Of a stretch of 37,403 nucleotides of DNA, positions 280 to 28,858 are shown in pieces. Made by a program: the position numbers and the translations under genes. Each line of letters begins with the position of its first letter. The stretch's first letter is position 1. The notes beneath the pieces are model-generated. The model had not been told where the DNA came from and searched no databases. It saw only the letters and a program-made list of their open reading frames with translations. This DNA is from a virus. The stretch spans positions 1-37,403 of IMG/VR virus record IMGVR_UViG_3300025132_000114. One strand, written 5' to 3'.

Positions 280-518
280 ATAATGCATCACCTGGTTCAG
301 AAATGTACAACCAAAAAATGCAAGGCTCTAGAAATAGACCAAATATGATGCTTAGAAAAAAAGATAAAGTTGCTGATCAAAATTCTGAAACACCTATTGT
401 AGATGAGCTAACCAATGTATTAAAGACCTGGGAGACTAAATCCTACCCTAACGACAAAGCTAGATGGCAAGAGTACACAACAGACATAGCAAACCTTCTT
501 ACTAAATACCAAGGATAA
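267..518 (+). CDS. Small hypothetical protein, 83 aa, with LRKK motif
   Basis: ATG 267 is preceded by AAGGAAATT as SD. The 83-aa product has a polar N-terminus, a PNMMLRKKDKV segment at about residues 25-35, and a helical C-terminal half (VDELTNVLKTWETK...). The LRKK segment recurs in the small proteins at 3675 and 4459. The stop overlaps the start of the next gene as TAATG, which suggests translational coupling. Its function is unknown. Its place just before the terminase block suggests a virion or assembly role, but that is inference. Confidence 0.7.
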   Translation: MSAIDNASPGSEMYNQKMQGSRNRPNMMLRKKDKVADQNSETPIVDELTNVLKTWETKSYPNDKARWQEYTTDIANLLTKYQG

Positions 519-1943: not shown

Positions 1944-2273
1944 ATGGAAACCTCAGAACAGGCTAAAAACAGGCAAAAGAACGGTCAATTTGCACCAGGA
2001 CAATCAGGCAATCCAGGTGGTAGACCTAAGTCTGGAGCTACTATAATAGATAAATTTAGAGAAAACGAAACATCACAGGTTGTGATAAATAAGCTCTTTG
2101 AAATAGCAAGTACACTTAACACAGATGATGAGCATAAAGAAGCGATGAGTGCAGCTAAGGTAATAGTTGACAAATTGATACCATCACTAAAGTCTCAAGA
2201 GATTAGGATGGATATTGATAACGAACGTGGATTTGTGTTTATGCCAGAGCAGAAGGCAAGTGACAAGCAATAA
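1944..2273 (+). CDS. Candidate terminase small subunit (DUF5681-like N-terminus)
   Basis: This 109-aa protein lies directly upstream of the large terminase gene, the usual place for a small terminase. The N-terminus has NGQFAPGQSGNPGGRPK at about residues 13-29. This is the GQSGNPxGRPKG signature of the DUF5681 type often seen in phage DNA-packaging loci, and it resembles an AT-hook. A helical middle (IIDKFRENETSQVVINKLFE...) and a hydrophilic tail follow. DNA recognition during packaging is inferred from position and the basic Gly-rich motif, not from a proven family link. The large terminase start lies inside its 3' end. Confidence 0.55.
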   Translation: METSEQAKNRQKNGQFAPGQSGNPGGRPKSGATIIDKFRENETSQVVINKLFEIASTLNTDDEHKEAMSAAKVIVDKLIPSLKSQEIRMDIDNERGFVFMPEQKASDKQ

Positions 2274-3666
2274 TACTTTGTGGAAACCACACCCTGGTCC
2301 ACAAACTTATGTACTATCAGTAAGTGATGTATATGAAAATTTGTATGGTGGAAGTCGCGGTGGCGGAAAAACAGACGCAGGTATCGTATGGCTACTAAAG
2401 CATACTGATAACCCAGACTTCAGAGGACTAGTAATAAGACGTAATAGTATAGACCTTACAGACTGGATAGATAGGGCACAAAGGATGTACCCAACAGCAT
2501 CTATAACTGGTCAACCACCTACAATAACCTTCCCATCTGGAGCCAAAATACGCACAGGGCATCTGCAAAACGAGAACGCATTTCAGCGTTATCAAGGTCA
2601 CGAATACCAAAGGATAGTAATTGAGGAGTTGACTCAAATACCTGATGAGCAACAATACTTAAAATTAATTAGTAGTTGCCGATCAACAGTCCAAGGTATA
2701 GCACCACAAGTATTTTGCACAACGAATCCTGGAAACCAAGGACACGCTTGGGTAAAAGCAAGGTGGCGTATAGGCGATAAAGCATCTAATAAAGCATTTA
2801 AGGACCCTATAAGTGGGAGGTATAGAATGTATGTACCAGCAACTATTGACGATAATCCAACGCTCGTCAAAAACGACCCAGATTATGTGGCATTTCTAGA
2901 ATCACTTCCAGAACCACTACGCTCTGCCTGGCGTTCAGGCGATTGGGACGTTTACGCAGGACAGTTCTTCACAGAGTTTACAGATAAGAAGCACGTGATA
3001 ACAGAGTCTAGAGCTAAGGAACTAGGATATGGTTCACATATAAACCACAGGTATATGGGTATTGATTGGGGTTACGCGGCACCTTTTTGTTGTTTATGGG
3101 TAGAGGTTACAAGAGATAATAAAGTTTTTGTATATAGAGAGTTATATGGTAACGAAAAGCATCCAGGTGAATGGGGTGAGGAGATATCTAAAATAAATCA
3201 AGAGGACGATGTTGTGATGGCTTTAGGTGACCCATCGATGTGGATACGTAATCCAATGTCGTGGAATAATCCAGCTACAACAATGTATAGTGATAAGTCA
3301 ATAGCATTAGCTTTGATGGATTCAGGTGTGTCTAACTTACAACCTGCTAACAATAATAGAATAAATGGTTGGAGAAATATGGCACAGTTGATGCACTTTG
3401 ATGAAGGTATAGAGCCAAATTTTTATGTCATAAAAGGTAGTTGCCCTAATCTACTAAGAACTATACCACTTATGATCAGGGATGAGAAGAACCCTGAAGA
3501 TTTAGATACAACAGCTGAAGACCACGCAGTGGATGCGTGTCGATATGCTTTAACAAGTGTAGTTGCACCAACTAAGAGTAAGAAAGATAAACCGATCTTG
3601 CAACAACAGATTGATACTCTGATGATGCCAGAGGAAGAAAATTGGAATTATGATTTTAATAAGTAG
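2260..3666 (+). CDS. terL: Terminase large subunit (ATPase and nuclease for DNA packaging)
   Basis: The packaging motor protein threads DNA into the prohead and cuts it. Numbered from GTG 2260 (468 aa), the visible motifs are Walker A GGSRGGGKT at 30-38, Walker B IVIEE at about 119-123, coupling motif VFCTTNP at about 151-157, and RNase H-like nuclease acids in MGIDWG (D269), ALGDPS (D324) and DHAVDACRYAL (D421/D425). All key residues are present. The frame extends upstream to TTG 2215, but GTG 2260 with AGAAGG just before it is a better start. The first 14 bases overlap the small terminase candidate. Confidence 0.93.
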   Translation: MTSNNTLWKPHPGPQTYVLSVSDVYENLYGGSRGGGKTDAGIVWLLKHTDNPDFRGLVIRRNSIDLTDWIDRAQRMYPTASITGQPPTITFPSGAKIRTGHLQNENAFQRYQGHEYQRIVIEELTQIPDEQQYLKLISSCRSTVQGIAPQVFCTTNPGNQGHAWVKARWRIGDKASNKAFKDPISGRYRMYVPATIDDNPTLVKNDPDYVAFLESLPEPLRSAWRSGDWDVYAGQFFTEFTDKKHVITESRAKELGYGSHINHRYMGIDWGYAAPFCCLWVEVTRDNKVFVYRELYGNEKHPGEWGEEISKINQEDDVVMALGDPSMWIRNPMSWNNPATTMYSDKSIALALMDSGVSNLQPANNNRINGWRNMAQLMHFDEGIEPNFYVIKGSCPNLLRTIPLMIRDEKNPEDLDTTAEDHAVDACRYALTSVVAPTKSKKDKPILQQQIDTLMMPEEENWNYDFNK

Positions 3667-4458: not shown

Positions 4459-4650
4459 ATGGCTAAGATGATACTTAGAAAAAAGAAATCTATGAACTAC
4501 GAAGGACTTAGTGAGCGTCAGAATAAAGCACTATCAAAACATAGTGTGCATCACTCTAACAAACATATGAATATGATGGCATCTCTTATGCGTGAGGGTA
4601 AAACATTTACTGAAGCACATAATATAGCGATGTCGAAGGTAGGTAAATAA
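4459..4650 (+). CDS. Small basic phage protein, 63 aa (LSERQNKALSKHS type)
   Basis: ATG 4459 starts MAKMILRKKKSMNYEGLSER. The centre, QNKALSKHSVHHSNKHMNMM, is His-rich, and the C-terminus is GKTFTEAHNIAMSKVGK. This pattern (ALxxHSxHHSxKHM... GKxFxEAHxxAM) recurs in small phage proteins next to portal genes. Its function is unknown. The stop overlaps the portal ATG (TAATG), so it is probably co-translated with the portal. Confidence 0.7.
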   Translation: MAKMILRKKKSMNYEGLSERQNKALSKHSVHHSNKHMNMMASLMREGKTFTEAHNIAMSKVGK

Positions 4651-6434
4651 TGCCCGATCAATACGATGTAGCAGGTAATACAGAGAATATGAGTACAGCT
4701 AACAGGTACGAACCATCTGTAGAAGAAACTAGAAAACTTAAGATGCTTAATGGTATGTTTCAGGCAGCTAAGAAAGCTAAGTCACATAAGATTAAAAGAT
4801 GGAGACGTAACGAAGAATTGTACAACGGTGACTTCTTTAAACCTTTTAACCTACCAAAGTATAAATCTAGAATTGTAGCCAACACAATACACAGTACGCT
4901 TGAGACTATCTACTCCATCCTTACAGATAGGTTTCCTAAAGTGGATATAATGCCAAAGAGGGAAGACCAAATCAAATCAGCCAGGATAGCTCAGGACGCT
5001 GTTGACAGTGAACTGGATAAAAGAAAAGCAGGTAAAGCCATCAATATGATGAAAAGAGATGGGTTACTATATGGCAACGGATTTGTCAAAGTAATATATA
5101 ACGAAGGTAGGGCATCTTTTGTGGTGCCTGATGTATACACTGTGTTCTTTGACCCTCTGGCTACAGAAATTGACAACGCAAAGTACGTAACATTTGCAAC
5201 ACCTACGTACCTAAAAGAAGTTAGAAAGATGTTTGAGAATGGAAAGTTTGTAAAGCCTGAAGGTTCTATGGATGAGTACAGGTCTTTTATAAGAGATAAA
5301 GACGATACTGAGGACTCTATATCGCAGGTAACTACAGCATCTGGTGGTACTACAGGTGTATCAAGTGGTATGAGAACTGACTACGTAAGTAAATCACCTG
5401 CGTATGATCAGTCAGAAGAAGGTAAGGGTGTGTATGGTGGGCAAGTATTATTAAAGGAATGCTGGTTCTGGGAAGGTGAAAAACTAATGTTAGCTACCTG
5501 GGCAGGTAAGGTATTACTACAATTAGTAGAGTCACCATACGAGGATATACCTCTAGTTATGTTTAAGAATTACGCAGATGCACATCACCTATGGGGTAAG
5601 GGTGAGCCTGAGATTATCGAAAGTTTATCTGTAGGTACAGCAATACTATTATCACAAGGCATAGATAATATTATATACCACGGTAACCCTGCTATGATTA
5701 TGAGCAAGTCTCTAGCTAAAGAGGTAGGTAATAGACCAAGCGATAAGCCTGGTAAAGTTTACTACACTAATGGACCACACGAACAAATACAAAGGCTAGA
5801 TGCAGGTAATATGTCCTCATCTACCTTACCTATGTCGCAAACACTAATGCAGATGACAGATACAGTAAGTGGTGTACACGATATTACACAAGGTCGTAAT
5901 CCATCAGGCGTTACTGCATCACGAGCTATACAGCAATTACAAGAGGCATCGCAGCAAGTAATTAGAGCTAAAGAGCGTGAGGTAGGCACAGATGCTATAC
6001 TAGACTTATATAAACTAACCCTAAAATTATTACATAGGAACTACGAAGAAGCTATAAGCGTAAGAAAATTTGCACAGGATGGTGCAGGATATGAATTTGA
6101 ACAAGTAATGCCATATGACATAGACTCTGATATGGACTTTAAGTACGTACCAGGTAGTAGTTTACCTGAGTCAAGAGCAAGTCGTATGGATCAGGCGATG
6201 GACCTAATACAAATGGGTCTACTTGACCAAGAAAAGTTTTGGAGATGGACACAGAAAGATATCTCTCAAGAGATACTAGACGAGATATTAGAGCAGAAAA
6301 AACTTGCTGTTGAGCAAATGCAGAAGGATATGCAAACAATGCAACAATCCACGAACCCTGCTGATATAGAGAATGCACAACTAAGACTAAGGGAGGGTAT
6401 GGGTTTTGGCAGACAGCAAACTGAAGAAGAATAA
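4650..6434 (+). CDS. Portal protein
   Basis: The 594-aa portal forms the ring at the capsid vertex through which DNA passes. The order of segments fits podovirus (P22-type) portals: an N-terminal helical clip/wing region with KIKRWRRNEELYNGD, a MKRDGLLYGNGFVKVIYNEG strand, PDVYTVFFDPLA, WFWEGEKLMLATWAGKVLL, a KNYADAHHLWGKGEPE segment, a long stem region with VSGVHDITQGRNPSGVTASRA, and an acidic, Gln-rich C-terminus. Position downstream of the large terminase supports it. The start is fixed by the TAATG overlap. The 3' end overlaps the next small gene by 29 bases. Confidence 0.9.
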   Translation: MPDQYDVAGNTENMSTANRYEPSVEETRKLKMLNGMFQAAKKAKSHKIKRWRRNEELYNGDFFKPFNLPKYKSRIVANTIHSTLETIYSILTDRFPKVDIMPKREDQIKSARIAQDAVDSELDKRKAGKAINMMKRDGLLYGNGFVKVIYNEGRASFVVPDVYTVFFDPLATEIDNAKYVTFATPTYLKEVRKMFENGKFVKPEGSMDEYRSFIRDKDDTEDSISQVTTASGGTTGVSSGMRTDYVSKSPAYDQSEEGKGVYGGQVLLKECWFWEGEKLMLATWAGKVLLQLVESPYEDIPLVMFKNYADAHHLWGKGEPEIIESLSVGTAILLSQGIDNIIYHGNPAMIMSKSLAKEVGNRPSDKPGKVYYTNGPHEQIQRLDAGNMSSSTLPMSQTLMQMTDTVSGVHDITQGRNPSGVTASRAIQQLQEASQQVIRAKEREVGTDAILDLYKLTLKLLHRNYEEAISVRKFAQDGAGYEFEQVMPYDIDSDMDFKYVPGSSLPESRASRMDQAMDLIQMGLLDQEKFWRWTQKDISQEILDEILEQKKLAVEQMQKDMQTMQQSTNPADIENAQLRLREGMGFGRQQTEEE

Positions 6435-7988: not shown

Positions 7989-9083
7989 ATGTCTTTAAAT
8001 TATGATAGCTTATCTGCCTTGACTAAGGATAAATTCCTACCAATATTGATTGATAATATTTTTAACTCTAATGTTTTGACGCTAAAACTTTTAAAGGATG
8101 CTGAAAAACTAGATGGTGGTAAAAAGATTATTACTCCAATAGAGTATGGAACTAACTCAGCTCAAGGATTCTTCTCTGGTTATGATGTTTTAGATACAAC
8201 TCCATCTGATCCAATTACAGCTGCTGAGTGGGACTGGAAACAGGCTTACGCTAGTATTACTATAAGTGGTGAAGAAGAATTGAAAAATAGTGGAGACAGT
8301 GCAGTATTGTCTTTGCTAAAATCTAAAATGCGTAACGCAGAGAAATCGCTTAAGGATTTGTTTGGCACTAAATTATTTGGTGGTACAACAGCTCCTGGAG
8401 CAAAAGAAATATCGTCACTAACTGGTTTTGGAGCTATAAGCAACACAACACATAACGATGATGCTTTATACGACAACCCAGCTGGTACAAGCACATTTCA
8501 CGCTGGTGGTAATATTGATAACTGTATTATTGGTTACAATAGAAGCCTAGGTGGAATTAACTCTGACGATTATTCTTGGTGGGATTCAAAAATCGGTACA
8601 TTTGCTGATAAACAAACTACAGTAACAGATGCTTTAACTTTCGATGAGATGACAGCTACAACAAATGGTGTTGCTGCTATGGTTAGAGAGATGACTCAGG
8701 CATATGGTGCTGCTACAATAGACAACGACCATCCAGACTTGATTGTTGTGCCACAGGTTATATTCGATGCATACGAATCTAGCTTACAGGCTAACAAGAG
8801 ATGGGAAGGTGATGCTATGTTAGCAGATGCTGGATTCCAAACTTTAAGATTTAAAGGAGCAAGTGTTGTAGTAGACTCACACGCACCAGCAGGTTCGATG
8901 ATTATGCTTAACACTAAATACCTTGATTTTAAAGTACATTCAAAGCGTAATTTTACGTTTGAAAACTTTATGAAACCAATTAACCAGGACGCTCGTGTAG
9001 CCAAGATATTCTGGATGGGACAGTTAACCTGTACTAATCCTAGAATGCAAGTTGGTATCGTGGGTGGACCTACAACCCATTAA
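7989..9083 (+). CDS. Major capsid protein (HK97-fold)
   Basis: The 364-aa protein has the size, position and composition of a podovirus major capsid protein. ATG 7989 has AAAGGAGAAATAAG upstream. Visible features are an N-terminal helical region (LPILIDNIFNSNVLTLKLLKD), an EYGTNSAQGFFSGYDVLDTTP loop, a KSLKDLFGTKLFGG helix-loop, and a C-terminal A-domain-like part with DLIVVPQVIFDAYESSLQ, MIMLNTKYLDFKVHSKRNF and RMQVGIVGG. No N-terminal protease-cleaved delta domain is apparent, in agreement with a separate scaffold gene. Confidence 0.9.
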   Translation: MSLNYDSLSALTKDKFLPILIDNIFNSNVLTLKLLKDAEKLDGGKKIITPIEYGTNSAQGFFSGYDVLDTTPSDPITAAEWDWKQAYASITISGEEELKNSGDSAVLSLLKSKMRNAEKSLKDLFGTKLFGGTTAPGAKEISSLTGFGAISNTTHNDDALYDNPAGTSTFHAGGNIDNCIIGYNRSLGGINSDDYSWWDSKIGTFADKQTTVTDALTFDEMTATTNGVAAMVREMTQAYGAATIDNDHPDLIVVPQVIFDAYESSLQANKRWEGDAMLADAGFQTLRFKGASVVVDSHAPAGSMIMLNTKYLDFKVHSKRNFTFENFMKPINQDARVAKIFWMGQLTCTNPRMQVGIVGGPTTH

Positions 9084-16645: not shown

Positions 16646-17233
16646 ATGACTTGGGAAAAACTAGCAGATAGATGTAATTTATTCATAGACGCAGATAAGA
16701 ATTTATTAATAAATCTACTAAGAGAGGCAGAGGTAGAATTAACAAGAAAAGTAAACATACTAGAGAACGAATACTCTGTAACTGCATTACAAGAGGTAAA
16801 ATTTTATGGTTTACCAGATGATTATAAGTCTATGATTACAGTATTAGTCGAAGGTGACCACAAAAGACCTATGACTGATGATGAATTTTTTTACGACACA
16901 GATAACCAATTACACACAGGAACCCCATCAGGGTACTCTGTTAGAGGTAATAATATATTCTTCTCACAAAGACCTAATAAAGGCGATAAAATTAAAATAG
17001 TATACAACAGTCTAGCACAAGTAGATAAAGACTCTAAACCACATCAATCTAGTCCTGTAATACCTACTGTATACCACAAGGACTTGTGCAACTACGCTAT
17101 TGCGATAGCAGCTGCTAAAGAAATGCCTACAATGTACGATAAACACTGGAACCTTTGGTTAATAAGCATAGAGGATGTAAAGAACGAGATTGCAGATAGA
17201 GAACTACTTTATAATATGAAGGAGGAAATTTAA
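16646..17233 (+). CDS. Putative head-tail adaptor protein (second of two)
   Basis: ATG 16646 has AAGGAGATATTT upstream. The 195-aa protein has an N-terminal helical part (WEKLADRCNLFIDADKNLL), the strand LPDDYKSMITVLVEGDHKR, then GTPSGYSVRGNNIFFSQRP, NKGDKIKIVYNSL, and a C-terminal YHKDLCNYAIAIAAAKE helix. A G-P-x-x-Y...GNxIxFxxxP...I.I.Y core followed by a Cys/Tyr helix is typical of the podovirus adaptor between portal and nozzle. The product stops in a TAATG overlap with the next gene. I am more sure of this adaptor than of the first. Confidence 0.65.
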   Translation: MTWEKLADRCNLFIDADKNLLINLLREAEVELTRKVNILENEYSVTALQEVKFYGLPDDYKSMITVLVEGDHKRPMTDDEFFYDTDNQLHTGTPSGYSVRGNNIFFSQRPNKGDKIKIVYNSLAQVDKDSKPHQSSPVIPTVYHKDLCNYAIAIAAAKEMPTMYDKHWNLWLISIEDVKNEIADRELLYNMKEEI

Positions 17234-17862
17234 TGTCTTTTTTAATACCAGCATTGAATGTTATAGGTAGTATAGCACAGCACAGAAAAAATAAAAAAGC
17301 AATTAATCAAGCTAAGAAGATGACCTCATCTGAAAGAGCGTATAGAGATAGATTGCAAAAAAGGTCTGAGCAAGGCGACCCACAATTTGAGCAAACACGT
17401 AATAGGGTTATGAGTGGTATACGAAATGTAGCACAAGAAGCACAAGGTCAAAATATAAACCAGGCTCTACAGATGGGATTGCAAGATTCTGTTATAGCAC
17501 AGGAGCTTAGATTACGAACAGATTCAGCTACTATGAAACAAATATCAGAGTCTTCACAAGAACTAGCACAAGCTAACCAACAAATTAAAGAACAAGCACA
17601 ATCTGACTTAGATCAGTTTAACCTACAAAGAGATGATAGAATTAGACAGCTTAACTTACAAAGAACACAGAGCAGTAACGCTGCACTTTCTAATATACTA
17701 GGTAGCGTAGGTGATGCAGCTGTAGGTATTATGAATAGAAACAAACCACAGATACAAAGTTTTGGTGGAGGGTATAGCGTAACAAGAGGTGGTAAAACAA
17801 CATTGTTTGCACAGAAAAAAGATGCAAATGGTAATATTACATACGAAGAAGTAAGTCCATAA
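17233..17862 (+). CDS. Internal virion/ejection protein (P22 gp7 or T7 gp14 type)
   Basis: The 209-aa protein starts at a TAATG overlap. The N-terminus MSFLIPALNVIGSIAQHRKN is hydrophobic. The middle (about 60-150) is a Gln/Ala-rich helical stretch (NINQALQMGLQDSVIAQEL, AQANQQIKEQAQSDLDQFN), and the C-terminus has LGSVGDAAVGIMNRNKPQ and a Gly-rich tail. This combination of N-terminal hydrophobic helix and long Gln-rich coil fits the small internal core or ejection proteins that leave the head with the DNA. No enzyme motif is present. Confidence 0.6.
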   Translation: MSFLIPALNVIGSIAQHRKNKKAINQAKKMTSSERAYRDRLQKRSEQGDPQFEQTRNRVMSGIRNVAQEAQGQNINQALQMGLQDSVIAQELRLRTDSATMKQISESSQELAQANQQIKEQAQSDLDQFNLQRDDRIRQLNLQRTQSSNAALSNILGSVGDAAVGIMNRNKPQIQSFGGGYSVTRGGKTTLFAQKKDANGNITYEEVSP

Positions 17863-18594
17863 ATGGCTACTGTTACACTTACAAAAGATATTAGCAACGA
17901 AACTATACAAAAGTTTATGGAGCAAAACGCTAATTTTAAGAAACAAGAGAAAAAAACAGCAGAGCAGCTAAAGTCTGAGCGAGAAAAAAGACAAGCGTAC
18001 ATAGAAGTTAATTATCCAAGTTTTGAAAAATACAAACCCCTTATAGGTAATAAAATAAACCTAGAGGCTAGAATTGGTGATTTAAAGAAAGACCTAGGAA
18101 CCATAGAAAAAAACATAAGAACCAAAATAAAAGATTATTATAAGTCTAATTTACCTGCAAATACACCAATTACTGAAGAAACACCTACAACAATTAAAGA
18201 ACATTTAAATAGTAAGTATTTTAATTTTAATAATTGGTACAACAGTTTAGAAAGATTGGATAAAGAGGAAATAGATTCTTACTATAATACTCTTGAAGAA
18301 TTATATACCTGGAGCTCTCAACCAGAGATAGACGATGAGTTTAGAGATGAGTACACAGAAACACCTGCTGTATTGTTTGATAAAATATTGTTGTCGCAAA
18401 ATGCAACAGGACTAGGTAGTGGAACACAAGCTGAAAAAGCTAATGCACTTATGGCAGCTATACAATGGGAGTATGTAGAATCAAACTCACGTATTAAAAA
18501 ATATAAATTAAACACGGTATACCACTTTAAAAACGGTAGTTTTATGTATGTTGGTGGTGAACCTACAAACATTAAAAGTTGGATAAGACAATAA
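17863..18594 (+). CDS. Putative internal virion protein, 243 aa
   Basis: ATG 17863 directly follows the previous stop. The protein begins with coiled coils (QNANFKKQEKKTAEQLKSER, LEARIGDLKKDLGTIEKN) and ends in a compact region with TGLGSGTQAEKANALMAAIQ and FKNGSFMYVGGEPTN. No domain was recognised. It lies among the ejection-type genes and is translationally coupled to the next by TAATG, so a role in the internal core is likely but unproven. Confidence 0.55.
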   Translation: MATVTLTKDISNETIQKFMEQNANFKKQEKKTAEQLKSEREKRQAYIEVNYPSFEKYKPLIGNKINLEARIGDLKKDLGTIEKNIRTKIKDYYKSNLPANTPITEETPTTIKEHLNSKYFNFNNWYNSLERLDKEEIDSYYNTLEELYTWSSQPEIDDEFRDEYTETPAVLFDKILLSQNATGLGSGTQAEKANALMAAIQWEYVESNSRIKKYKLNTVYHFKNGSFMYVGGEPTNIKSWIRQ

Positions 18595-21500
18595 TGTCAG
18601 TAACAAGATTATACGATATAGGTAAGTACAAAGATATAACTGGTTTAGAAAAAGACCAAAACGAATCGCTAAAGCTGCACTACAATGTTATGGTAGAGCG
18701 ATCAGATGATAAACAAAAAAAGTTCTTAGGTGATTGGAATAACTTTTCTAAAAACTTTACGCATCCTGACTCAGCTGCAACATACGTAGAAAAATTAAGA
18801 GAGGTAGGTGTTGTACAAAAAAACGCAGAATATTACTCAAATATGTACACACCAAGAAAGGTTACAACAGTTGGAGTATCACCAGACTCTGTAATAAAAA
18901 ACTACGAGTTTAAAGACAATGTTATAAAAAAAGAGATAGATGGTGTGGATAGGACTTTTGGTTTAGCTAGAATAGTTAACGATACAACAGATATAGTAAC
19001 TGATAAAAAAACAATAAATTTAATAGATAAAAGTATTGGTGCTGCTAGTGAATTACCTTTGTATTTTCTTATAAACCAAGAAACTCCTATCAATATGGAA
19101 AATATCTTAATAAAGAATTATTCTAACATATTGAGTGGGAAAGGTCTAATAAAAAAAGCAAATAAAAATGTTGTTATTGATGCATTTAGTGAAGGTAAAA
19201 CAAAAAGCACAGAATTAAAACATCCACTAGCATTTAAAAAAGGTGATATAGAGAACACAGATTTAAATCAAACTGAATACGAAGTATACCAAAGTATGCA
19301 ACGTATGAACCATAAATTTGATATAAACCATATAACTGAAAACCCAGAAGATTTTAAAAAAGACATATCAAACAGTTATTTTTTTACAAAAGCACACAAA
19401 GACAAAAGATTTAACAACGATGCAGTTGATGTAAATTTAACAGAACTAAATTCTGAGCTTAAAGACGTTTTAAAAGACTATGTGCAAAACTCTACATACC
19501 CACCAAGCACAAAAGAACTATTACTAAACTTTGTAGAAACAGAGGTTTTAGCAAGTCAAATAAAAGATTTTGGACCTACCTTTGGAACAGATAAAGAAAC
19601 GATGAAGAAAGTAGGAACAAATGGATACTACGATAGAACCTTGTATAATATCTTTGATGAAAACCACGAGCTTAATCAATTTTATTTACCTATAGATATG
19701 AACGGAGATAAAGTTTATACAATAGAAGATGATGAGGCGAGGCAAGATACGTATAATCTTATGAAAAGTTATTTAGAGGACGAAGAAACAAAACACCTTG
19801 TGCCTAAATATTTATTAAATAAAAAAGGGCAACTAAAAAACTTTACAACTAACCCAAACCTTAAATATTATTTACCAGGTTCAGCACCTGTAACAGACAT
19901 AGAAAAAGATGAGATGTTTGACCAAAGACAAGATATTTTAAATTTTTTAAAACAAGACCCAGAGCTTGTAGGTACACTGAAAACAATATACGAGAAATAT
20001 GAGAGTACACGTAGTAACGAATACTACAATAACAACGTAAGGCAAATGCTAAAAAAAGAGTCAGATAATTTTGCAGAGGCACAGTATAACAAAATAATAG
20101 GTCACTTACAAAAAAATAACTTTTTAGCAGAAGGCTTTGCTTACGTTGACACAGAAACAAAAGAAATAGTAACACCTGACAATTTAGAAAAGATAACAAA
20201 ACAATACAGCGAGTTAGCGTATTATAGGGAAAATATTGATCAGTTAAACAATATAATAGAAGGTAGAAAGTTAGGTATGGATGACCCTATGTACAGAGGC
20301 ACTAAAACTGTGCTTGAGGCTTTTGCTGCTGGTGCAGATGCATTTACAGGAGGCTTATCCACAGCAGCTCTTGAAATGTTGCCAAAAGAGATGAGAGATA
20401 TTTATTTACAAGCAAAGGACGTAAGAACTTTTCACAGTTCTATGATGGAAACATACCCACACTACAAGAAGTGGGTCAAGGCTAATCAAAGCAACCTACA
20501 TAAAAGTACAGATGTAGGTATAGATGGCAGTGCAGTAGCCTTAAATGTAGCAGGTTTTATGAAATTTATGAAAGGTGTTAACAAGTATGGTAACCCACTT
20601 GTTCCAGGATTAGGTTCAAAAATGTCACTACAAACTCGTCAGATGCTTAAATCAGGAGCAATATTCTCTGGATATAACGCAGTTACTAGCACCTTTAACC
20701 CTGATATACCTATTGGATTTTATAAAGAAAGAACGCAAACAGGTTACAGCGACTACGCTTGGAACGATAGTGCTAAGGACTATATGCTTAAAATAGGACC
20801 ACAAACACTTACATCTTTTGCTTTTGGTATGTTATTTCCTAAACTACAAAATGTGGGTGGAAATGTTAATACTGTTGGTATGGCACAGATGGGCAAAGAA
20901 GACCCAATGGCTACATTTAAAGCAGCTACAACATTTTTAACACAGGTAGGGGTTCTTACAGGTGGTACTACAGGTGAGCAATTAATTGCACAATCGATGA
21001 TAAACTACACTAACCAATTTACAGATGACTACCAGGGAGAGCCTGTAAGTCTACAACAAGCGTTTAGTATGGGAGTAGAACAAATATTTGAAGATGGTGA
21101 AGGTAACTTTGACCCATCTAACTTAGCAGCTAACGCAACATTTATGTTTTTCTTGCACGGTACAGGTAATTATAAAAGATTTGATTTTAGAAAAAACAAA
21201 AAAGTATTAGACGATTTATATAAAAACAAAGTAGACTTTGAAGTAGCACCTGGTGGACAGGTAAAAAAAGCACCACCTATTTCTGTTAAAGAATATACAG
21301 CACGTGAGAACTATGTTAACGCAGAGAGGCACAAACTTATGGTAGATTGGGCAGATGAGATAGTGAAAAACCACGAGGTACCTGCTTGGGTAAAAAAAGG
21401 GTACAAAGGCACTCCTGATGAAAATCAAGCTGTATATAATTGGTTTAGAAATTATTACCAAAAACCTGATGTATTATTTAGTAAAATACAAGAATTATTA

Positions 21501-21977
21501 GTTAAATTTGAAGGTAAGAAAATAGCTATACCTGTAGAGCAAAAAGGAACAGGAAAAATTACAAACTTAATAGTAGATTACAGAAAACCTAAAAAAACAG
21601 AAAAGGGTATTATTGGTGACGAAAATAACCCAGCAGCTAAAGATGCATCTTATGAATATTTTACAAAAAATTTAAGAGAACTTAGAGATAGATATGAGCA
21701 AGTTTACAACGCATACAGACAAGACCCTACAAAGGTAGATATAAAACAAATGCAAGATGCCTACGATGAGGTGATGGATATGTACTACACTAACTTATTT
21801 ATACACGGTGATTACAAGAGCATTCCTGATCCACAATCTAGAAAGGCTACATACAGAGTAGTAAACATAGGTGGAAAGGAATATTTATACGACCCACTTA
21901 CAGGATTAAGAGACAATTTGCCACCAGAGCTTAAGATAACTAGGGAGTTTGGTGGATTAGGAGATAAAGTAGAATAA
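18594..21977 (+). CDS. Large internal virion protein, 1127 aa
   Basis: I chose ATG 18594 (TAATG overlap) over an in-frame TTG at 18579. The first ~580 residues are helical and charged. From about 590 to 830 there are several weakly hydrophobic stretches (TVLEAFAAGADAFTGG, GSAVALNVAGFMKFMKG-like, KIGPQTLTSFAFGMLFPK, FLTQVGVLTGGTTGEQL) that may insert into membrane. The last ~300 residues are polar again and end in a YLYDPLTGLRD segment. Large size, hydrophobic middle and position among ejection genes suggest a T7 gp15/gp16-like role in moving DNA into the cell. No catalytic motif was recognised. Confidence 0.55.
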   Translation: MSVTRLYDIGKYKDITGLEKDQNESLKLHYNVMVERSDDKQKKFLGDWNNFSKNFTHPDSAATYVEKLREVGVVQKNAEYYSNMYTPRKVTTVGVSPDSVIKNYEFKDNVIKKEIDGVDRTFGLARIVNDTTDIVTDKKTINLIDKSIGAASELPLYFLINQETPINMENILIKNYSNILSGKGLIKKANKNVVIDAFSEGKTKSTELKHPLAFKKGDIENTDLNQTEYEVYQSMQRMNHKFDINHITENPEDFKKDISNSYFFTKAHKDKRFNNDAVDVNLTELNSELKDVLKDYVQNSTYPPSTKELLLNFVETEVLASQIKDFGPTFGTDKETMKKVGTNGYYDRTLYNIFDENHELNQFYLPIDMNGDKVYTIEDDEARQDTYNLMKSYLEDEETKHLVPKYLLNKKGQLKNFTTNPNLKYYLPGSAPVTDIEKDEMFDQRQDILNFLKQDPELVGTLKTIYEKYESTRSNEYYNNNVRQMLKKESDNFAEAQYNKIIGHLQKNNFLAEGFAYVDTETKEIVTPDNLEKITKQYSELAYYRENIDQLNNIIEGRKLGMDDPMYRGTKTVLEAFAAGADAFTGGLSTAALEMLPKEMRDIYLQAKDVRTFHSSMMETYPHYKKWVKANQSNLHKSTDVGIDGSAVALNVAGFMKFMKGVNKYGNPLVPGLGSKMSLQTRQMLKSGAIFSGYNAVTSTFNPDIPIGFYKERTQTGYSDYAWNDSAKDYMLKIGPQTLTSFAFGMLFPKLQNVGGNVNTVGMAQMGKEDPMATFKAATTFLTQVGVLTGGTTGEQLIAQSMINYTNQFTDDYQGEPVSLQQAFSMGVEQIFEDGEGNFDPSNLAANATFMFFLHGTGNYKRFDFRKNKKVLDDLYKNKVDFEVAPGGQVKKAPPISVKEYTARENYVNAERHKLMVDWADEIVKNHEVPAWVKKGYKGTPDENQAVYNWFRNYYQKPDVLFSKIQELLVKFEGKKIAIPVEQKGTGKITNLIVDYRKPKKTEKGIIGDENNPAAKDASYEYFTKNLRELRDRYEQVYNAYRQDPTKVDIKQMQDAYDEVMDMYYTNLFIHGDYKSIPDPQSRKATYRVVNIGGKEYLYDPLTGLRDNLPPELKITREFGGLGDKVE

Positions 21978-24900
21978 TGTCAAAAAGACCCTTAAAATCA
22001 ACGTATAACTACAAACCACAAACAGCTAAAAGACCTACAAAGCTAGAGGACTTAGGTAGCTTTGATTATGATGCGTTTCCTAACGTAAAACCAATAAACG
22101 ATTTTAGAGCAGATATTAATGGTCAAGAGTATTTAGTATTTGAGGTAGATGGTACGTGGTACAAAGAACCGTTAAATATAGAAGAACAATCCTACGATAC
22201 ACCTGATGTAAACGTATTTGAGAACCAATCTGGTATAGATGCAATAAATAAAAACAACAACTTTAATAACCCACTTAATGTAGGCGTAGATGACTACGCA
22301 CCTTTTAACGCAAACGAACTACCTACAGATGAAAGTAATTTAGGGTTAGAGCAAGAAGGTATAGGCTTTTTAAAAGAAGAAGGTCTAGCACCAACACACC
22401 TAGAAAATATACACGAGCACAACAGAAATTTGACTTACACCGATAACTTATCTATTAAGTTTATGGATAACGATTTAGTAGAGGTATTTACAGAGGATAA
22501 TGTAGATCAGCAAATAGTAGTACAACCAGATGGCAGGGAGATGCTAGTAGAAACAATAGCTGACTACCCTGTAGGTGCACTAGACAATTTTTTAATAAAA
22601 GAAGGAGACCCTCAGTATGAGCCAGGAAAAAGAAATTGGCGTATCCCAATCGCAGCAGAAAACTATGAACCAGACCCCAAAAACCCGTTACAAACTAAAG
22701 TTACCTTATCTAGAAACTCTGGCATTGGAGATTACATCGAAGATGCGATTGTTGAACCAGTCTTACAAGGGATTAGGGCAACAGAGCCAGAAGTCTACAA
22801 AAGACTCTCAGATTGGGCAGATGGACAAATTACAAAATTCAGAGAAAGGCTAGGTATACAATTATACGGAACAAACGAACTAATAAGTAAATTATACACA
22901 GCACAAAGACTAGGTCATAAAAGTCAAGATGTAATGGACGTGTTTGAAAAAACAGGCTTGTTGTTACCAAGCGATTTAGTTGATATATTAGATAGCATAG
23001 TAACTACATCTAGAGAAGGACGTACTAATATAGAGGTTTTAAAGAATGGTCCTGATCACATAAACCAAATACCTGCATCTAACAAAATACTAGAAACAGA
23101 CGCACCTGAAGGAAAGCCTGTAAGATATTCTATTAAGGATATGAAGAAAGAAGACAGACAGCGTATGGTTAATAGTGGTAGAGCAGGAGGTTTTATAGGC
23201 AAGGACCCTGTAACCTGGAGACACGCAGCAAAGGAAATAGAACCTTATCACGAGATACTTGACTATGGTGCAGGTAAAAATGCAAGGCAAACTAAAAAAT
23301 ATCAAGCAGAGGGTTTTAACGTCAATGCCTGGGATTTACCTGAGAACCAAGCAACTACCTTACACGACCCACAAGCATTAAGAAAGAGATACGATTACGT
23401 AGTAGCTAGTAACGTAATAAATGTGCAACCAAACATAAGCTCAGTTAAGAATGTATTAGATGAGATATACAGTGTAACAAACCCAGGGGGTAAGGTTGTT
23501 TTAAACTTTCCTAGCTCCCCACGCAATAGCAATCTTACACCAGCTGGGTTAGAGAAAATGCTTAACAGAATATTTGAGGGTGTTAGGAAAGTAGATGGAA
23601 CCACATCTAGTCCTGTATTTGAAGCTAGACGTAGAGTTAAGGGAGTACGTAAAAAAGAACAAGTAGCTGAAATGTTAGATAAGATAGTTGATATAGATTA
23701 TAAGAACGATTTAGAGGTTGAAAATTATGCAGTAGCACAAGCTATGAACGATATAGTAACATTGCTCGAAGACCCTACTTTTAGATTAAACGACCAACTA
23801 GAATGGTACGGAGAAGAAATATCTGATGCTATGGATATTGTATCTCTAGAGCCAGGTATGCAGATAATAAAAGAAAAGCCAGAATATGAAATGTTATTTA
23901 AAACATTACTTGGTATTACAAGTCAAGGTATTGGACCTATGGCACAATTCCAGTGGTCTGTAGATTTAACAAAACACTTTATAAAAACAGACAAATTTAG
24001 ATACGGTAAAAACACAAGTGGAAAAACTGTTTTAAAGGCAAAAAATTTAGAAAACGAATTAAATACTGTAGGTGTATTAGCAGGAGGTGTTGTTGCTACA
24101 CAAGCAAAAAGAATAGAAACTTTAATAAACGAATTTGGAATCCAAGGTGCTATGGACTGGATGGTAACACCTATAACTGGTTATGGAATAAAAGATTGGA
24201 GCGTATCTAATGGTTTTTCAATACCTGGTCATATTAAAAAAAATAAATCAACTTTAGAAAAAACTTACTATGGTGCAAATATGTTTGGTCCAAAGATAGG
24301 CAGGTATATCTTAGGTATTTATGGATTTGACTCTGAAGCTGTGTATGATCAGTGGTGGACATCTACTTGGAGACGTTGGTTAGGCAAGATGTTTAGAGTT
24401 AATAAAGAAGGTGAGTTTATTTTAGACAAAAAGGGTGAAAAAATAATACGTCAATCGCCTGAAGGTCAAGAAATTATAATAATGGATAAAGTAATAGATA
24501 GAGTTGCAAATGCACTATCAAAAGAGTTAAATTATCCTTTTACAAGAATGCAAATACAAGCACTTTTATGGGAGTATGAAAAGGTTTTATGGGAAAACCT
24601 AGGACAGAAACCAGAGCTTAGTGTTAATTATAAAAACGCAGCTATGATAAGAGCTGAAAGGTTAGGTTACGCAGATGAATATGCCACATCCCAAAGTCTT
24701 AGAGACGCTATTAAAGCTAAGGTCAGAAATTTCTATAGAACCAGCGAAGCTGTCAAAAGCATTGAAGAAGGCGTTAAAACAGGAAGGGTTAGAAACTTAC
24801 TTAAGAAAAGATACTCCTTCAAAGTAAAAAGTTCTACAGATGTAGAAAACGTAGACCCTCTAGAATCTCCAATATATTACCCACAACTACAAAAGGTATT

Positions 24901-27900
24901 ACCTAGATTAATAGAAGACAATGTAAGTATACCTAAAAACAAATTTATAAAAACCTTAAAAGACTTAGGTGTCTCTAAGCTAGAGATATCTGATCTTGAA
25001 ATAAAAGATTTTATTAAAGAAAATAAAGGTGATACTATAAATCTTGACGATTTTCAAATACATTTTGATATTTTAGCTAACTTATCTATAGAGTCAACAA
25101 TTACTGGCGAAACTTATAAAGATTGGTTAAAAAGGATGAAAAAAGATTGGAATCTTGAAGAATCTGATATCCCTGTAAATGTTAGAGAGTCGTTTTCAAA
25201 AATATATACTAAGGTTTTTATGATATCCTCAGACAATCTTCTTACAAAATCAAGGGTAACATTTAGTTTACATAGAACAAAAAAAGGTGAAAAGATTGCA
25301 ATTTTAGATGGTATAGAGTCAGTTGCTAAAGACACACAAACTATGATAGATATGTTAGACGGTGAAGTTATAGCAACAAAAAAAATGCAGGAAAACACTA
25401 ATAATGTTTCAAAAATTTCAGTAAAAGAATATTTAAGACAGGCTACACAAGCAGGTGCAGATTATGTTTATGTGAAAAACAACTTAGAAAATGCAAACAC
25501 AAATATTATAAGAGATGAATTGTTTAAATATTTAGGTGACAAGATTGTACCAGAGAAAGAGGTAGAGGTAGATTTTAAACCTAGAAAATTATACCACGGT
25601 ACATACGCTGAATTTGATAACTTTAATATGGAATATGGAGATATAGGGTTGCATTTTGGAACTACTAGACAAGCACTAGACAGATTATCTAATTTAGATA
25701 CAGAGGGTCTGATAAAAAAATATCCAAATAGATTAATAAAAGTAGAACTAAATATTAAAAACCCACTACGTATGAAAGATATTGGGGGTTGGAACGAGTT
25801 AGAAGACTTTATGGAAACAATAGAAAATTTAGATGGAGTAGATGTAGACGCTTTAGATTTTTTTAACTACGAGGATTACGACCTATCTTTCGATGGGTTT
25901 AGAAGGTTTTTAATTGATCAGGGATATGATGGAATTGTATATAGAAACGATTATGAAGGAGTAAGAGAAGATAAAGATGCAACAGCCTCTTTATTAGAAT
26001 CTGATCCAGAGTTTTACGAAGGAACTACTGTACAGGATGAATCTTCTAAGTCTGACTCTTATATAGCTTTCGATAAAAGTCAAATAACTATTATAGATGA
26101 GCTAAGAGACCCACTTATTTTAAAGAACACATACACTCACCCTAAAAAACGATTTAGTATGAAAATAAGCGATGACGCTACACCACCTCCAAAAGAGGTA
26201 TATGTAGATAAAACAGATAGTGATTTACCTACCTGGAAGAAAGACGCACTAACCATAACTAGGAATAACTTAAATAGTATTAAGAAAACAGGTGGGTTTA
26301 CAAAAGACTTACTAGAAACTATAGACACTAGATTAAAATTAATAGCACCTAACCTAGAAAGCAAACTTAGAAAGTTTGAAATGGAACTAGGAATACAAAC
26401 AAACGAAAATCTTTTAAAACTTGCAAACTTTAAAGATAAAGTATTAGACAAGCTGTCAAAAGAAAAAAGATTACAATTAGAGTTAGCACTAGTTAACGCA
26501 GATGAAAGTATGGTAATTGACGTAATAAACGATTTACCTGATCAAGTATCAATAAATGCGTTCCAAGCTATAGAAGATTATAGAGAAATGTTAGACGAGT
26601 TTCATCAAAGAGCTCTCAACACAGGTTATGATATAGGATTTAGAAATTATTATTTCCCAAGAAGGGTTAAAGATTTAGATGGATTACTTACATTATTAAA
26701 TAAAAATAATCCAAGGTCTTCTGGCGTTATAACACAAGCTATTGCAGAAAAAGAAAGAAACTTAGGTAGGTCGTTAGATGATGATGAGCGTAGAGGATTC
26801 ATATCAAATATGATTAGAGGTTTCAATGTGATTGCTGGTAAACCTGGAAACTTAAAAGATAGAAGAATAGAGCATATTGATATGGAGATGTATAAAAACT
26901 ATTACGAAGATTTTTTAACTGCTAACGAAAAATACATTACAGGTATGGTTAGAACTATAAAAAGACAAGAGTTTTTTGGTAAAGGTGACGATAACGTAGA
27001 CGATATAGGAGGAGCAGTAGCAAGGTGGATGGGACAAGGGCAGTCTCCTGAAGAAATAGATAAGTCCAGTATGTTCAAACAACCTATAAATAAAGATGAT
27101 TCTCTTGATATGGAAGAACCTATTATACCACCAAACATAACACCTGATGAACAACAGCAAATTATAGATATATTAAGAGCTCGATTTAATTTTAGAGCAG
27201 CACACGGATTTGTTTCACCTATGAAAAATGTTTTATATGCTATGACTATGGGTAAAATAACATCTGCAATGCAACAGTTTGGAGATACTGCTTGGTCTTT
27301 TCATAGTGCAGGTTTTACACCTACAATAAAAGCAATATTACAAACACTTGTACGTAAAAACATATTAACTAAAGAAGATTTAGGTATAGAAAGAATTGCA
27401 GCTGAATTTAATAGAGTTGATAAGACAGGAAAAGCATTAGACTTTATATTTAAGGCAGTAGGTCTTGATGCTATGGATAGGTTAGGTAAAGAAACTTTAG
27501 TACAAGCTGAGTACGATAAAATGCGTAAACAAGCTAAAATAATATCAACAGGTAAATCTAGTTTTGTTTTAGATGAACAAAAGAAAAGAAACTTTTATGT
27601 TAAGCTATTACAAACATTTGAGTCTGAGCAAGTAGCTGATCAAGTAATCAAAGATTTATCCGAAGATAAGATGACAGAAGATATTAAGTTTTTAATGTTC
27701 TGTAGGTTATGCGATGTGCAACCAGTGACACAATCACAGGTACCTGTTAAATATTTAGACTCACCTAATGGAAGGATTGGTTATCAGCTAAAAACTTTTA
27801 CACTTAAACAATTTGATAATTATAGAAGAACAGGCACAATAAGAATGTCTAATGGACTATCTTTAATGGACGAAGGTAGAAAACAAAAAGAAGAAGGTGA

Positions 27901-28858
27901 GAAAACTAATAACAAAACAAAAATAGAAGATGGTAAAAGATTAATAAGAGAGGGTAGAAAAGAATACGCATCTGCATTTGGTAGTTTAGTTAGGCTGTTA
28001 GCAATATTCTTTGCTACAGATACAGCTGCAAATGTTGCAAAAGATTACGTTATGGGTAGAGAGGTAGACTTAGAAGATTATGTAGTAGATGGTATATTTA
28101 GATTATTTGGATTCTCTAGGTACATAATATACACTGGTAAAAGAGAAGGATACGGACGTGCTTTATTGGAACAATTCATACCGTTTGGTTTATTTATATC
28201 ACTAGAGGGTAAGGCAGAAAGAGATTTAACTAAATTATATAAAGTTTGGAAAGGTGAAAAAGAGTGGAGTGAAACATACTTTGAAACACCTAACATTGTG
28301 CCTGTTGCTGATTGGGTAACTCTTGGATTAAATGCATTCGATAAAATAGCAGGAACAGATACAGCGAAAGAGGTGCCACTAGGTAAAACATACTACTGGT
28401 GGTATGGAGGTGGTAAGAAAAAGCAATTAGAAAGAAATATAAAAACTATAGCAGACGCATCTAAAGAAGGACTTAAAACATACGATACTTATGAAAAAGT
28501 ATTAGACGCAGAAAGGCATTTGAATAGAGATTTAGCTGATCTACAATCAATGCACGTTTTAGATGACGCAGATAGAAAGTCAACTATAAAGTCTTTTTAC
28601 AATAATATATTAAAGGAATTAAAAGATAGAAAGTCAGGTTTGCAAGGTGAAGATGCTAATGTGTATACAGATGATGAGCTTAATACACTAACCCAAGTTT
28701 TACAAAGAATGGTGTCTATAGGTCTTAAAAGTAGAGATAATGCAAGAAAAACTTATAAAGACATATTAAGTAAGTATGTACCATCTCAAAAAGAAAAGGA
28801 ACAAAAGCGACAGGAAGAAGGTCTCAAATTTAAGGAGTTATATGAGGAGGCTAACTAA
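21977..28858 (+). CDS. Giant polyvalent ejection protein with methyltransferase- and ADP-ribosyltransferase-like domains
   Basis: This 2293-aa protein, the largest here, starts by TAATG overlap. Domains in order: (1) a SAM methyltransferase-like fold at about 395-560 with ILDYGAGKN at 427-435 (motif I), YDYVVASNVINVQP at about 471-484 and NPGGKVVLNFPSS at about 502; (2) a helical block at about 760-870 with FGPKIGRYILGIYG and QWWTSTWRRWLGK; (3) a short module at about 985-1030 (FIKTLKDLGVSKLEISDLEI) resembling one widespread in polyvalent proteins; (4) an ART-like domain at about 1200-1372 with LYHGT (H1207), LHFGT, GYDGIVY and SDSYIAF; (5) a helical C-terminus with a hydrophobic segment near 2000. 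It is probably injected with the genome and acts on the host or on restriction. The domain calls are by eye. Confidence 0.75.
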   Translation: MSKRPLKSTYNYKPQTAKRPTKLEDLGSFDYDAFPNVKPINDFRADINGQEYLVFEVDGTWYKEPLNIEEQSYDTPDVNVFENQSGIDAINKNNNFNNPLNVGVDDYAPFNANELPTDESNLGLEQEGIGFLKEEGLAPTHLENIHEHNRNLTYTDNLSIKFMDNDLVEVFTEDNVDQQIVVQPDGREMLVETIADYPVGALDNFLIKEGDPQYEPGKRNWRIPIAAENYEPDPKNPLQTKVTLSRNSGIGDYIEDAIVEPVLQGIRATEPEVYKRLSDWADGQITKFRERLGIQLYGTNELISKLYTAQRLGHKSQDVMDVFEKTGLLLPSDLVDILDSIVTTSREGRTNIEVLKNGPDHINQIPASNKILETDAPEGKPVRYSIKDMKKEDRQRMVNSGRAGGFIGKDPVTWRHAAKEIEPYHEILDYGAGKNARQTKKYQAEGFNVNAWDLPENQATTLHDPQALRKRYDYVVASNVINVQPNISSVKNVLDEIYSVTNPGGKVVLNFPSSPRNSNLTPAGLEKMLNRIFEGVRKVDGTTSSPVFEARRRVKGVRKKEQVAEMLDKIVDIDYKNDLEVENYAVAQAMNDIVTLLEDPTFRLNDQLEWYGEEISDAMDIVSLEPGMQIIKEKPEYEMLFKTLLGITSQGIGPMAQFQWSVDLTKHFIKTDKFRYGKNTSGKTVLKAKNLENELNTVGVLAGGVVATQAKRIETLINEFGIQGAMDWMVTPITGYGIKDWSVSNGFSIPGHIKKNKSTLEKTYYGANMFGPKIGRYILGIYGFDSEAVYDQWWTSTWRRWLGKMFRVNKEGEFILDKKGEKIIRQSPEGQEIIIMDKVIDRVANALSKELNYPFTRMQIQALLWEYEKVLWENLGQKPELSVNYKNAAMIRAERLGYADEYATSQSLRDAIKAKVRNFYRTSEAVKSIEEGVKTGRVRNLLKKRYSFKVKSSTDVENVDPLESPIYYPQLQKVLPRLIEDNVSIPKNKFIKTLKDLGVSKLEISDLEIKDFIKENKGDTINLDDFQIHFDILANLSIESTITGETYKDWLKRMKKDWNLEESDIPVNVRESFSKIYTKVFMISSDNLLTKSRVTFSLHRTKKGEKIAILDGIESVAKDTQTMIDMLDGEVIATKKMQENTNNVSKISVKEYLRQATQAGADYVYVKNNLENANTNIIRDELFKYLGDKIVPEKEVEVDFKPRKLYHGTYAEFDNFNMEYGDIGLHFGTTRQALDRLSNLDTEGLIKKYPNRLIKVELNIKNPLRMKDIGGWNELEDFMETIENLDGVDVDALDFFNYEDYDLSFDGFRRFLIDQGYDGIVYRNDYEGVREDKDATASLLESDPEFYEGTTVQDESSKSDSYIAFDKSQITIIDELRDPLILKNTYTHPKKRFSMKISDDATPPPKEVYVDKTDSDLPTWKKDALTITRNNLNSIKKTGGFTKDLLETIDTRLKLIAPNLESKLRKFEMELGIQTNENLLKLANFKDKVLDKLSKEKRLQLELALVNADESMVIDVINDLPDQVSINAFQAIEDYREMLDEFHQRALNTGYDIGFRNYYFPRRVKDLDGLLTLLNKNNPRSSGVITQAIAEKERNLGRSLDDDERRGFISNMIRGFNVIAGKPGNLKDRRIEHIDMEMYKNYYEDFLTANEKYITGMVRTIKRQEFFGKGDDNVDDIGGAVARWMGQGQSPEEIDKSSMFKQPINKDDSLDMEEPIIPPNITPDEQQQIIDILRARFNFRAAHGFVSPMKNVLYAMTMGKITSAMQQFGDTAWSFHSAGFTPTIKAILQTLVRKNILTKEDLGIERIAAEFNRVDKTGKALDFIFKAVGLDAMDRLGKETLVQAEYDKMRKQAKIISTGKSSFVLDEQKKRNFYVKLLQTFESEQVADQVIKDLSEDKMTEDIKFLMFCRLCDVQPVTQSQVPVKYLDSPNGRIGYQLKTFTLKQFDNYRRTGTIRMSNGLSLMDEGRKQKEEGEKTNNKTKIEDGKRLIREGRKEYASAFGSLVRLLAIFFATDTAANVAKDYVMGREVDLEDYVVDGIFRLFGFSRYIIYTGKREGYGRALLEQFIPFGLFISLEGKAERDLTKLYKVWKGEKEWSETYFETPNIVPVADWVTLGLNAFDKIAGTDTAKEVPLGKTYYWWYGGGKKKQLERNIKTIADASKEGLKTYDTYEKVLDAERHLNRDLADLQSMHVLDDADRKSTIKSFYNNILKELKDRKSGLQGEDANVYTDDELNTLTQVLQRMVSIGLKSRDNARKTYKDILSKYVPSQKEKEQKRQEEGLKFKELYEEAN

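What the first reader, a model, noticed from the sequence alone, without database searches (positions are those of the whole stretch)
21977..28858. Giant ejected polyvalent protein with methyltransferase-like and ADP-ribosyltransferase-like domains
Seen: in one 2293-aa frame there is a SAM-binding-type motif (ILDYGAGKN, 427-435) with YDYVVASN and NPGGKVVLNF in the right order, and about 770 residues later LYHGT, LHFGT, GYDGIVY and SDSYIAF, in the order of ART-like domains of polyvalent proteins. Established: polyvalent proteins of phages and conjugative elements combine such domains with LPD modules and are delivered with the DNA. Inference: here it lies at the end of the ejection-protein block, so it would enter the cell with the genome and modify DNA or host proteins before any phage gene is expressed.
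Basis: partly seen in the sequence, partly recalled or inferred. Interest (0 to 1): 0.8.

Follow-up and report, generated by a model that had tools for sequence, protein, structure and literature searches.

The report
Giant phage ejection protein with enzymes
A short-tailed phage carries one very long protein, probably fired into the host with its DNA, that holds a methyltransferase, a conserved domain of unknown function and an ADP-ribosyltransferase; it is a new arrangement of a known kind of 'polyvalent' phage protein rather than a new kind of system.

Summary
The 2293-aa frame (21977-28858) is real and sits last in the tail/ejection-protein block of a podovirus-like genome. Both domains are real. 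The methyltransferase (about 402-576) scores E 1.3e-13 with a profile built without it, and its model matches 315 PDB chains at E<=1e-3. The ADP-ribosyltransferase (about 1194-1374) is a member of Pfam ART-PolyVal (34.4 bits, cut-off 31.2, when scanned alone).

Three corrections. It is related to Pfam DUF7178, has a confident AlphaFold model with no match in the PDB, and occurs with an ART in 49 of 75 giant phage proteins examined that carry it. (2) The ART site is not H-Y-E: the strand-2 tyrosine is histidine, invariant in 56 non-redundant relatives, giving H1207-H1226 with D1318 and E1327. (3) 'Modifies DNA' is not supported: the methyltransferase lacks a DNA-methyltransferase catalytic motif and its nearest folds act mostly on small molecules or RNA. 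No LPD module is detectable.

Entry into the cell is inferred from gene position and known ejection proteins; nothing here shows virion incorporation. It is a new mosaic of a kind described in 2017. None of 122 other giant proteins examined has all three domains.

The parts
21977..28858 (+). Whole giant ORF, 2293 aa: putative last ejection (gp16-position) protein of polyvalent type
   Evidence: positional counterpart of giant ART proteins in MW202640, MW202722, PQ492659 and G004
21977..23146 (+). N-terminal region, residues 1-390, no family match
   Evidence: nothing; no relatives among collected loci
23180..23704 (+). Class I SAM-dependent methyltransferase domain, residues ~402-576 (motif I ILDYGAGKN 427-435, acid D453, motif IV-like ASNVINV, NPGGKVVLNF)
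   Evidence: Pfam Methyltransf_12 E 0.0012; phrog_4752 E 8.7e-4; window-free profile E 1.3e-13; AF2 pLDDT 72.9, Foldseek PDB E 6.4e-7, probability 1.00, 315 chains at E<=1e-3
23687..24571 (+). DUF7178-like domain, residues ~571-865; G771, K773, G775, D791 and W793 invariant in 44 sequences
   Evidence: 278 relatives in IMG/VR; invariants; DUF7178 hits in 21 of 44 members, best 3.4e-5; AF2 pLDDT 88.9, pTM 0.85; window-free profile E 9.4e-31
25556..26098 (+). ART-PolyVal ADP-ribosyltransferase domain, residues ~1194-1374, H-H variant (H1207, H1226, P1263, D1318, Y1322, N1324, E1327, S1361)
   Evidence: PF18760 34.4 bits against cut-off 31.2 when scanned alone; 280 relatives; conservation in 56 sequences; window-free profile E 4.9e-38
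26099..28855 (+). C-terminal region, residues ~1375-2293, no family match; one hydrophobic segment at 2000-2018
   Evidence: only one near-identical relative, 86% over 1707-2293
16646..17233 (+). Tail adaptor / virion structural protein (195 aa)
   Evidence: phrog_2941 E 1.2e-8
17233..17862 (+). Small ejection-protein candidate (209 aa), size and position of T7 gp14 / P22 gp7
   Evidence: related to the syntenic 200-aa protein of G004, phmmer E 4e-6; sizes in PMC8954989
17863..18594 (+). 243-aa protein of the block, unknown
   Evidence: no significant family
18579..21977 (+). 1132-aa protein of the block, position of T7 gp15 (tunnel protein), unknown by sequence
   Evidence: no family; position only

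Best explanation
The ORF is the last ejection protein of a podovirus-type phage (the T7 gp16 position), built as a polyvalent protein. SHOWN by sequence or model: a class I SAM methyltransferase domain, a DUF7178-like domain and an ART-PolyVal domain, in that order, with the SAM-binding loop and the ART family's invariant residues kept. INFERRED: (a) it is packed in the head and leaves through the tail during DNA entry, its long C-terminal part helping to build or anchor the channel at the inner membrane; (b) once in the cytoplasm, before any phage gene is expressed, the ART uses host NAD+ to ADP-ribosylate a host macromolecule, as T4 Alt does, and the methyltransferase modifies a non-DNA substrate (RNA, protein or small molecule); (c) the DUF7178-like domain works together with the ART, because the two co-occur in most giants that carry it.
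For: Window-free profiles find all three domains at E 1.3e-13, 9.4e-31 and 4.9e-38, with clean shuffled controls. Foldseek of the methyltransferase model against the PDB: 315 chains at E<=1e-3. PF18760 matches all 37 ART members tested, the window above its cut-off. Residues H1207, G1224, H1226, P1263, G1316, D1318, Y1322, N1324 and E1327 are 100% conserved in 56 non-redundant relatives. The DUF7178-like domain sits with an ART in 49 of 75 giants that carry it. Gene order hub, adaptor, ~200 aa, mid-size protein(s), giant ART protein is shared with three named podophages and, allowing for differences, with G004, whose capsid is 47% identical and which has a ~2326-aa ART + LPD38 protein. T7/P22 ejection proteins and polyvalent proteins as background: PMC8954989, PMC5512222.
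Against: No virion proteomics. The N- and C-terminal parts (about 1300 aa) match nothing, so the link to gp16-like channel formation rests on position, size and one hydrophobic stretch. No peptidoglycan hydrolase and no HExxH processing peptidase in the protein. The ART lacks the strand-2 tyrosine of the described H-Y-D active site. The methyltransferase model is moderate (pLDDT 72.9) and its substrate is unknown.
Confidence: 0.72

Rival explanations
1. The protein is mainly a structural ejection/channel protein, and the enzyme domains are inactive remnants or serve only as folded spacers.
For: Both enzyme domains deviate from canonical motifs: GKN instead of GKG in motif I, and H instead of Y in ART strand 2. 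The methyltransferase is diverged from its relatives at its C-terminal end.
Against: The ART change is shared and invariant across 56 relatives, which indicates selection and not decay. GKN also occurs in L326. Motif I, its acid and the motif IV strand are kept.
Confidence: 0.15
2. The protein is not ejected: it is made late and acts inside the producing cell, or stays in the particle as a tail/head structural part.
For: No proteomic evidence of virion location or ejection; ARTs can also act later in infection, as T4 ModA and ModB do (PMC9503650).
Against: Location in the late structural block with overlapping start and stop codons; the same position and size class in podophages, which need ejection proteins to cross the envelope.
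Confidence: 0.13
3. The middle domain (571-865) is a helix-hairpin-helix (HhH-GPD) DNA glycosylase, because GPKIG...D-x-W resembles the Lys and Asp sites of endonuclease III.
For: Pattern and spacing recalled from endonuclease III; K773 and D791 are invariant.
Against: A confident model gives no glycosylase among the 50 best PDB matches, best E 0.3; profile comparison with HhH-GPD proteins gives probability 0.1%; GPKIG lies inside a helix in the model.
Confidence: 0.04

Closest known systems
Phage polyvalent proteins (Iyer et al. 2017, PMC5512222), e.g. the ART-bearing giant of Roseovarius Plymouth podovirus 1
   Same: Very long single polypeptide combining unrelated enzyme domains, ART-PolyVal domain, encoded with head/tail genes of a portal-terminase phage, predicted to enter with DNA.
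   Different: No RNA polymerase, zincin peptidase or detectable LPD module; the methyltransferase is not the DNA-adenine methylase/SNF2 pair of that paper; the ART has H for the strand-2 Y.
Giant proteins of podophages ctEw122 (MW202640, UOF79766), ctQRb9 (MW202722) and Limnohabitans phage DC33 (PQ492659)
   Same: Same gene position, 2792-3209 aa, carry the DUF7178-like domain (22-26% identity) and a PolyVal-type ART.
   Different: Their ART has the classical Y and lies upstream of the DUF7178-like domain; no methyltransferase of this type; C-terminal parts not detectably related.
IMG/VR contig 3300023192_002062 giant ORF (locus L024)
   Same: Closest relative of the middle domain (35% identity) and the same H-H ART, in the same order.
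   Different: A different, unidentified domain replaces the methyltransferase; it ends in LPD38.
T7 gp16 / P22 gp16 / N4-type vRNAP ejection proteins
   Same: Last and largest protein of the ejection block; predicted to cross the envelope with the DNA.
   Different: No sequence similarity found; no transglycosylase or RNA polymerase domain; comparison is by position only.
T4 Alt
   Same: A packaged phage ADP-ribosyltransferase acting at once after injection (model for function).
   Different: Alt is of the R-S-E clade and a separate protein; here the ART is H-H with D/E inside a giant protein.

Membership tests
Polyvalent proteins (phage type) | Two or more unrelated enzymatic domains in one long polypeptide | tested here: met
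   Methyltransferase and ART in one 2293-aa chain
Polyvalent proteins (phage type) | Encoded with portal-terminase structural genes | tested here: met
   TerL, portal, capsid, adaptor and the giant ORF on one strand
Polyvalent proteins (phage type) | Linked LPD modules or zincin-like peptidase (common, not obligatory) | tested here: not met
   No LPD in Pfam scan to E 10; LPD38-region profile finds nothing convincing; no HExxH
Polyvalent proteins (phage type) | Delivered into the host with the DNA | not testable with these tools
   Needs virion proteomics or delivery assays
Pfam ART-PolyVal (PF18760) | Score above the curated cut-off | tested here: met
   34.4 bits against 31.2 when the domain is scanned alone; whole protein 26.8 bits, below it
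Tox-ART-HYD2 clade of polyvalent ARTs (PMC5512222) | H (strand 1), Y (strand 2), D (strand 5) active site | tested here: not met
   H1207 and D1318 kept; Y replaced by H1226, invariant in 56 relatives
Class I SAM-dependent methyltransferases | Rossmann-like fold with glycine-rich loop after strand 1 and acid at the end of strand 2 | tested here: met
   Motif DYGAGKN, D453; alternating strands and helices in the model; Foldseek probability 1.00
DNA methyltransferases | Catalytic DPPY/NPPY or PCQ motif | tested here: not met
   Motif IV position reads ASNVINV
DUF7178 (PF23802) | Profile match | tested here: inconclusive
   21 of 44 family members match, best E 3.4e-5; the window itself does not
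HhH-GPD DNA glycosylases | HhH-GPD fold or profile similarity | tested here: not met
T7 gp16-type ejection proteins | Sequence or fold similarity to gp16 | not tested
   Position and size fit, but the C-terminal part has too few relatives for a useful model

The most novel reading that the evidence does not exclude
A widespread subfamily of phage-ejected ARTs uses an H-H active site with invariant D and E instead of H-Y-D. In part of this group it works with a dedicated partner domain (DUF7178-like) that may select or present the substrate, so the pair would be a distinct early-infection effector module, possibly acting on nucleic acids or small molecules, not proteins.
Probability: 0.25. Interest if true: 0.55.

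Novelty: new member of a known kind. Interest (0 to 1): 0.38.

Why it matters
It adds a podovirus giant with a methyltransferase, a DUF7178-like domain and an ART in one chain to the polyvalent proteins, and shows that the middle domain, so far without a function, travels with ARTs in most of the giants that carry it. The H-H variant and the short list of invariant residues give direct targets for testing what these presumably ejected enzymes modify, for which I found no experiment in the papers read here.

Tried and rejected
HhH-GPD glycosylase for the middle domain: suggested by the GPKIG...D-x-W pattern, not supported by Foldseek or profile comparison. LPD38-type or ctEw122-type C-terminus: iterated profiles from 14 and 53 giants give no convincing match. 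A repeated helical module seen next to ARTs in Dolichospermum phage Dfl-JY45: profile finds nothing in the window. One alignment over methyltransferase, middle domain and ART for a joint model (A4): inspected, found misaligned, discarded. PDB by sequence profile for the middle domain and the ART: nothing meaningful. C-terminal relatives in IMG/VR and in named phages: only one near-identical contig. Terminase relatives in named phages did not place the genome usefully. Anti-phage defence models: none in the giant.

Full report
WHAT IS THERE. The window is a whole IMG/VR virus record of 37,403 bases, 35% G+C, with no terminal repeats found. Genes on the + strand read: large terminase (2215-3666), portal (4650-6434), capsid (7989-9083), a 228-aa stopper-like protein, a 1209-aa hub-like protein, a 195-aa adaptor-like protein (phrog_2941), then 209, 243, 1132 and 2293 aa, followed by a small membrane-type protein, recombination and replication genes, endolysin, NinG and a C5 DNA methyltransferase. 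No sheath, tube or tape-measure match was found, so this looks like a short-tailed phage. The 2293-aa ORF 21977-28858 starts with ATG, overlaps both neighbours by one base and has no internal stop.

ARE THE DOMAINS REAL. A first Pfam scan gave two sub-threshold hits: ART-PolyVal E 9.7e-6 and Methyltransf_12 E 0.0012. I therefore collected relatives and rebuilt profiles without the window protein. Scored as if against 24,736 models, the window then gives E 1.3e-13 (methyltransferase), 9.4e-31 (middle domain) and 4.9e-38 (ART); the reversed sequence and 50 shuffles give nothing better than E 0.59. The relatives were aligned together with the window before its row was removed, so these values are slightly generous.

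METHYLTRANSFERASE (about 402-576). Relatives with the motif LDYGAGK[GN] and a second motif xNVxNV lie mostly in other giant phage proteins (L179, L224, L324, L325 and others). L324, the closest (38%), joins it to a tRNA-nucleotidyltransferase-like head, DUF192 and acetyltransferase-like domains. The AlphaFold model (13 sequences, pLDDT 72.9, pTM 0.70) has the alternating strand-helix order of class I enzymes and matches 315 PDB chains at E<=1e-3. The nearest are small-molecule methyltransferases, TehB, NodS and a tRNA methyltransferase; one DNA enzyme (TaqI) appears at rank 49. The motif IV position reads ASNVINV and not a DNA-methyltransferase DPPY/PCQ. The genome has a separate C5 DNA methyltransferase at 34331-35524.

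ART (about 1194-1374). Scanned alone it passes the PF18760 cut-off (34.4 against 31.2 bits), and all 37 relatives tested match that family. 280 relatives were confirmed in IMG/VR and 80 fetched. In 56 non-redundant members H1207, G1224, H1226, P1263, G1316, D1318, Y1322, N1324 and E1327 are invariant and S1361 is 98% conserved; the window has all of them. Some of these positions were inside the search patterns, but H1207, P1263, E1327 and S1361 were not, and many members with H1226 do not fit the pattern that contained it. Aligned with classical PolyVal ARTs, some of them from the same proteins, H1226 falls exactly on the strand-2 tyrosine. The published active site for this group is H-Y-D (PMC5512222), and the three great ART clades are named H-H-h, H-Y-[EDQ] and R-S-E (PMC9503650). 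This is an H-H variant that keeps the acidic residues.

A THIRD DOMAIN (about 571-865). It is shared with the syntenic giants of ctEw122, ctQRb9 and DC33 and confirmed in 278 IMG/VR stretches, 80 of them fetched. Over 44 sequences G771, K773, G775, D791 and W793 (among others) are invariant (571 added to alignment numbering). 21 of 44 members match DUF7178 weakly. The model is confident (pLDDT 88.9, pTM 0.85) yet has no PDB match below E 0.3. In the viral structure library its 15 best hits (E<=1e-3) include giants annotated with ART-PolyVal, polyvalent-associated or RelA/SpoT domains, with small stand-alone phage proteins following at higher E-values. I suspected a DNA glycosylase from the GPKIG...D-x-W pattern; two tests did not support it.

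HOW COMMON IS THE COMBINATION. Among 123 giant proteins (122 others and the window), 75 carry the middle domain and 49 of these also an ART; 7 carry the methyltransferase type, 3 of them with an ART. Only the window has all three. This set was gathered by searching for the domains, and some proteins are cut by contig ends, so the counts describe association and not abundance.

DELIVERY AND FUNCTION. In named podophages and in G004 (long contig, capsid 47% identical) the same slot after hub, adaptor, ~200-aa and mid-size proteins holds a giant ART protein; G004's also has LPD38. Sizes 209, 1132 and 2293 aa fit, loosely, the outer-membrane pore, tunnel and inner-membrane proteins of T7 (196, 747, 1318 aa; PMC8954989). 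No sequence link to those proteins was found, and the C-terminal 900 residues match nothing. I therefore take ejection with the DNA as likely (about 0.75) but not shown. If so, the simplest reading is an early effector: ADP-ribosylation of a host macromolecule, with T4 Alt as functional model, plus methylation of a non-DNA substrate.

VERDICT. It is a new mosaic within a known kind (phage polyvalent proteins, 2017), with two points of some interest: the H-H ART subfamily and the ART-associated DUF7178-like domain.

Noticed in passing
window 518-1942: 474-aa ORF upstream of the terminase with no family match; its C-terminal part (KFEGGNRSDTHNNPGA...) resembles small phage wall-active domains by eye. 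It could be the missing wall hydrolase of the virion.
   Followed up: no
window 34331-35524: C5 DNA methyltransferase (phrog_116 E 3e-84), separate from the methyltransferase domain of the giant protein.
   Followed up: partly
window 1944-3666: Large terminase preceded by a small protein of the type found before terminases (phrog_26239/4114); the nearest named TerL is only about 40% identical, so the phage is far from named ones.
   Followed up: partly
L324 (IMGVR 3300009706_001761): A single ORF of over 2100 aa joins a tRNA nucleotidyltransferase-like head, HD domain, methyltransferase, DUF192 and acetyltransferase-like domains: an unusual polyvalent protein.
   Followed up: partly
L024 giant ORF residues ~430-640 and L015 giant ORF: An unidentified enzyme-like domain (HDxxGH ... 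RGEENAWxxH) occurs in several giants; in L024 it precedes the middle domain, in the place of the methyltransferase.
   Followed up: no
L016 (PQ492659, Limnohabitans phage DC33): The record's taxonomy line says Inoviridae (filamentous), but its genes are those of a 39-kb podovirus with a 3125-aa polyvalent protein; probably a labelling error.
   Followed up: no
L018 1998-2411 (Escherichia phage 121Q gp404): A stand-alone 137-aa protein of jumbo coliphages is an H-H variant ART like the one in the window; it could be a convenient small model enzyme.
   Followed up: no
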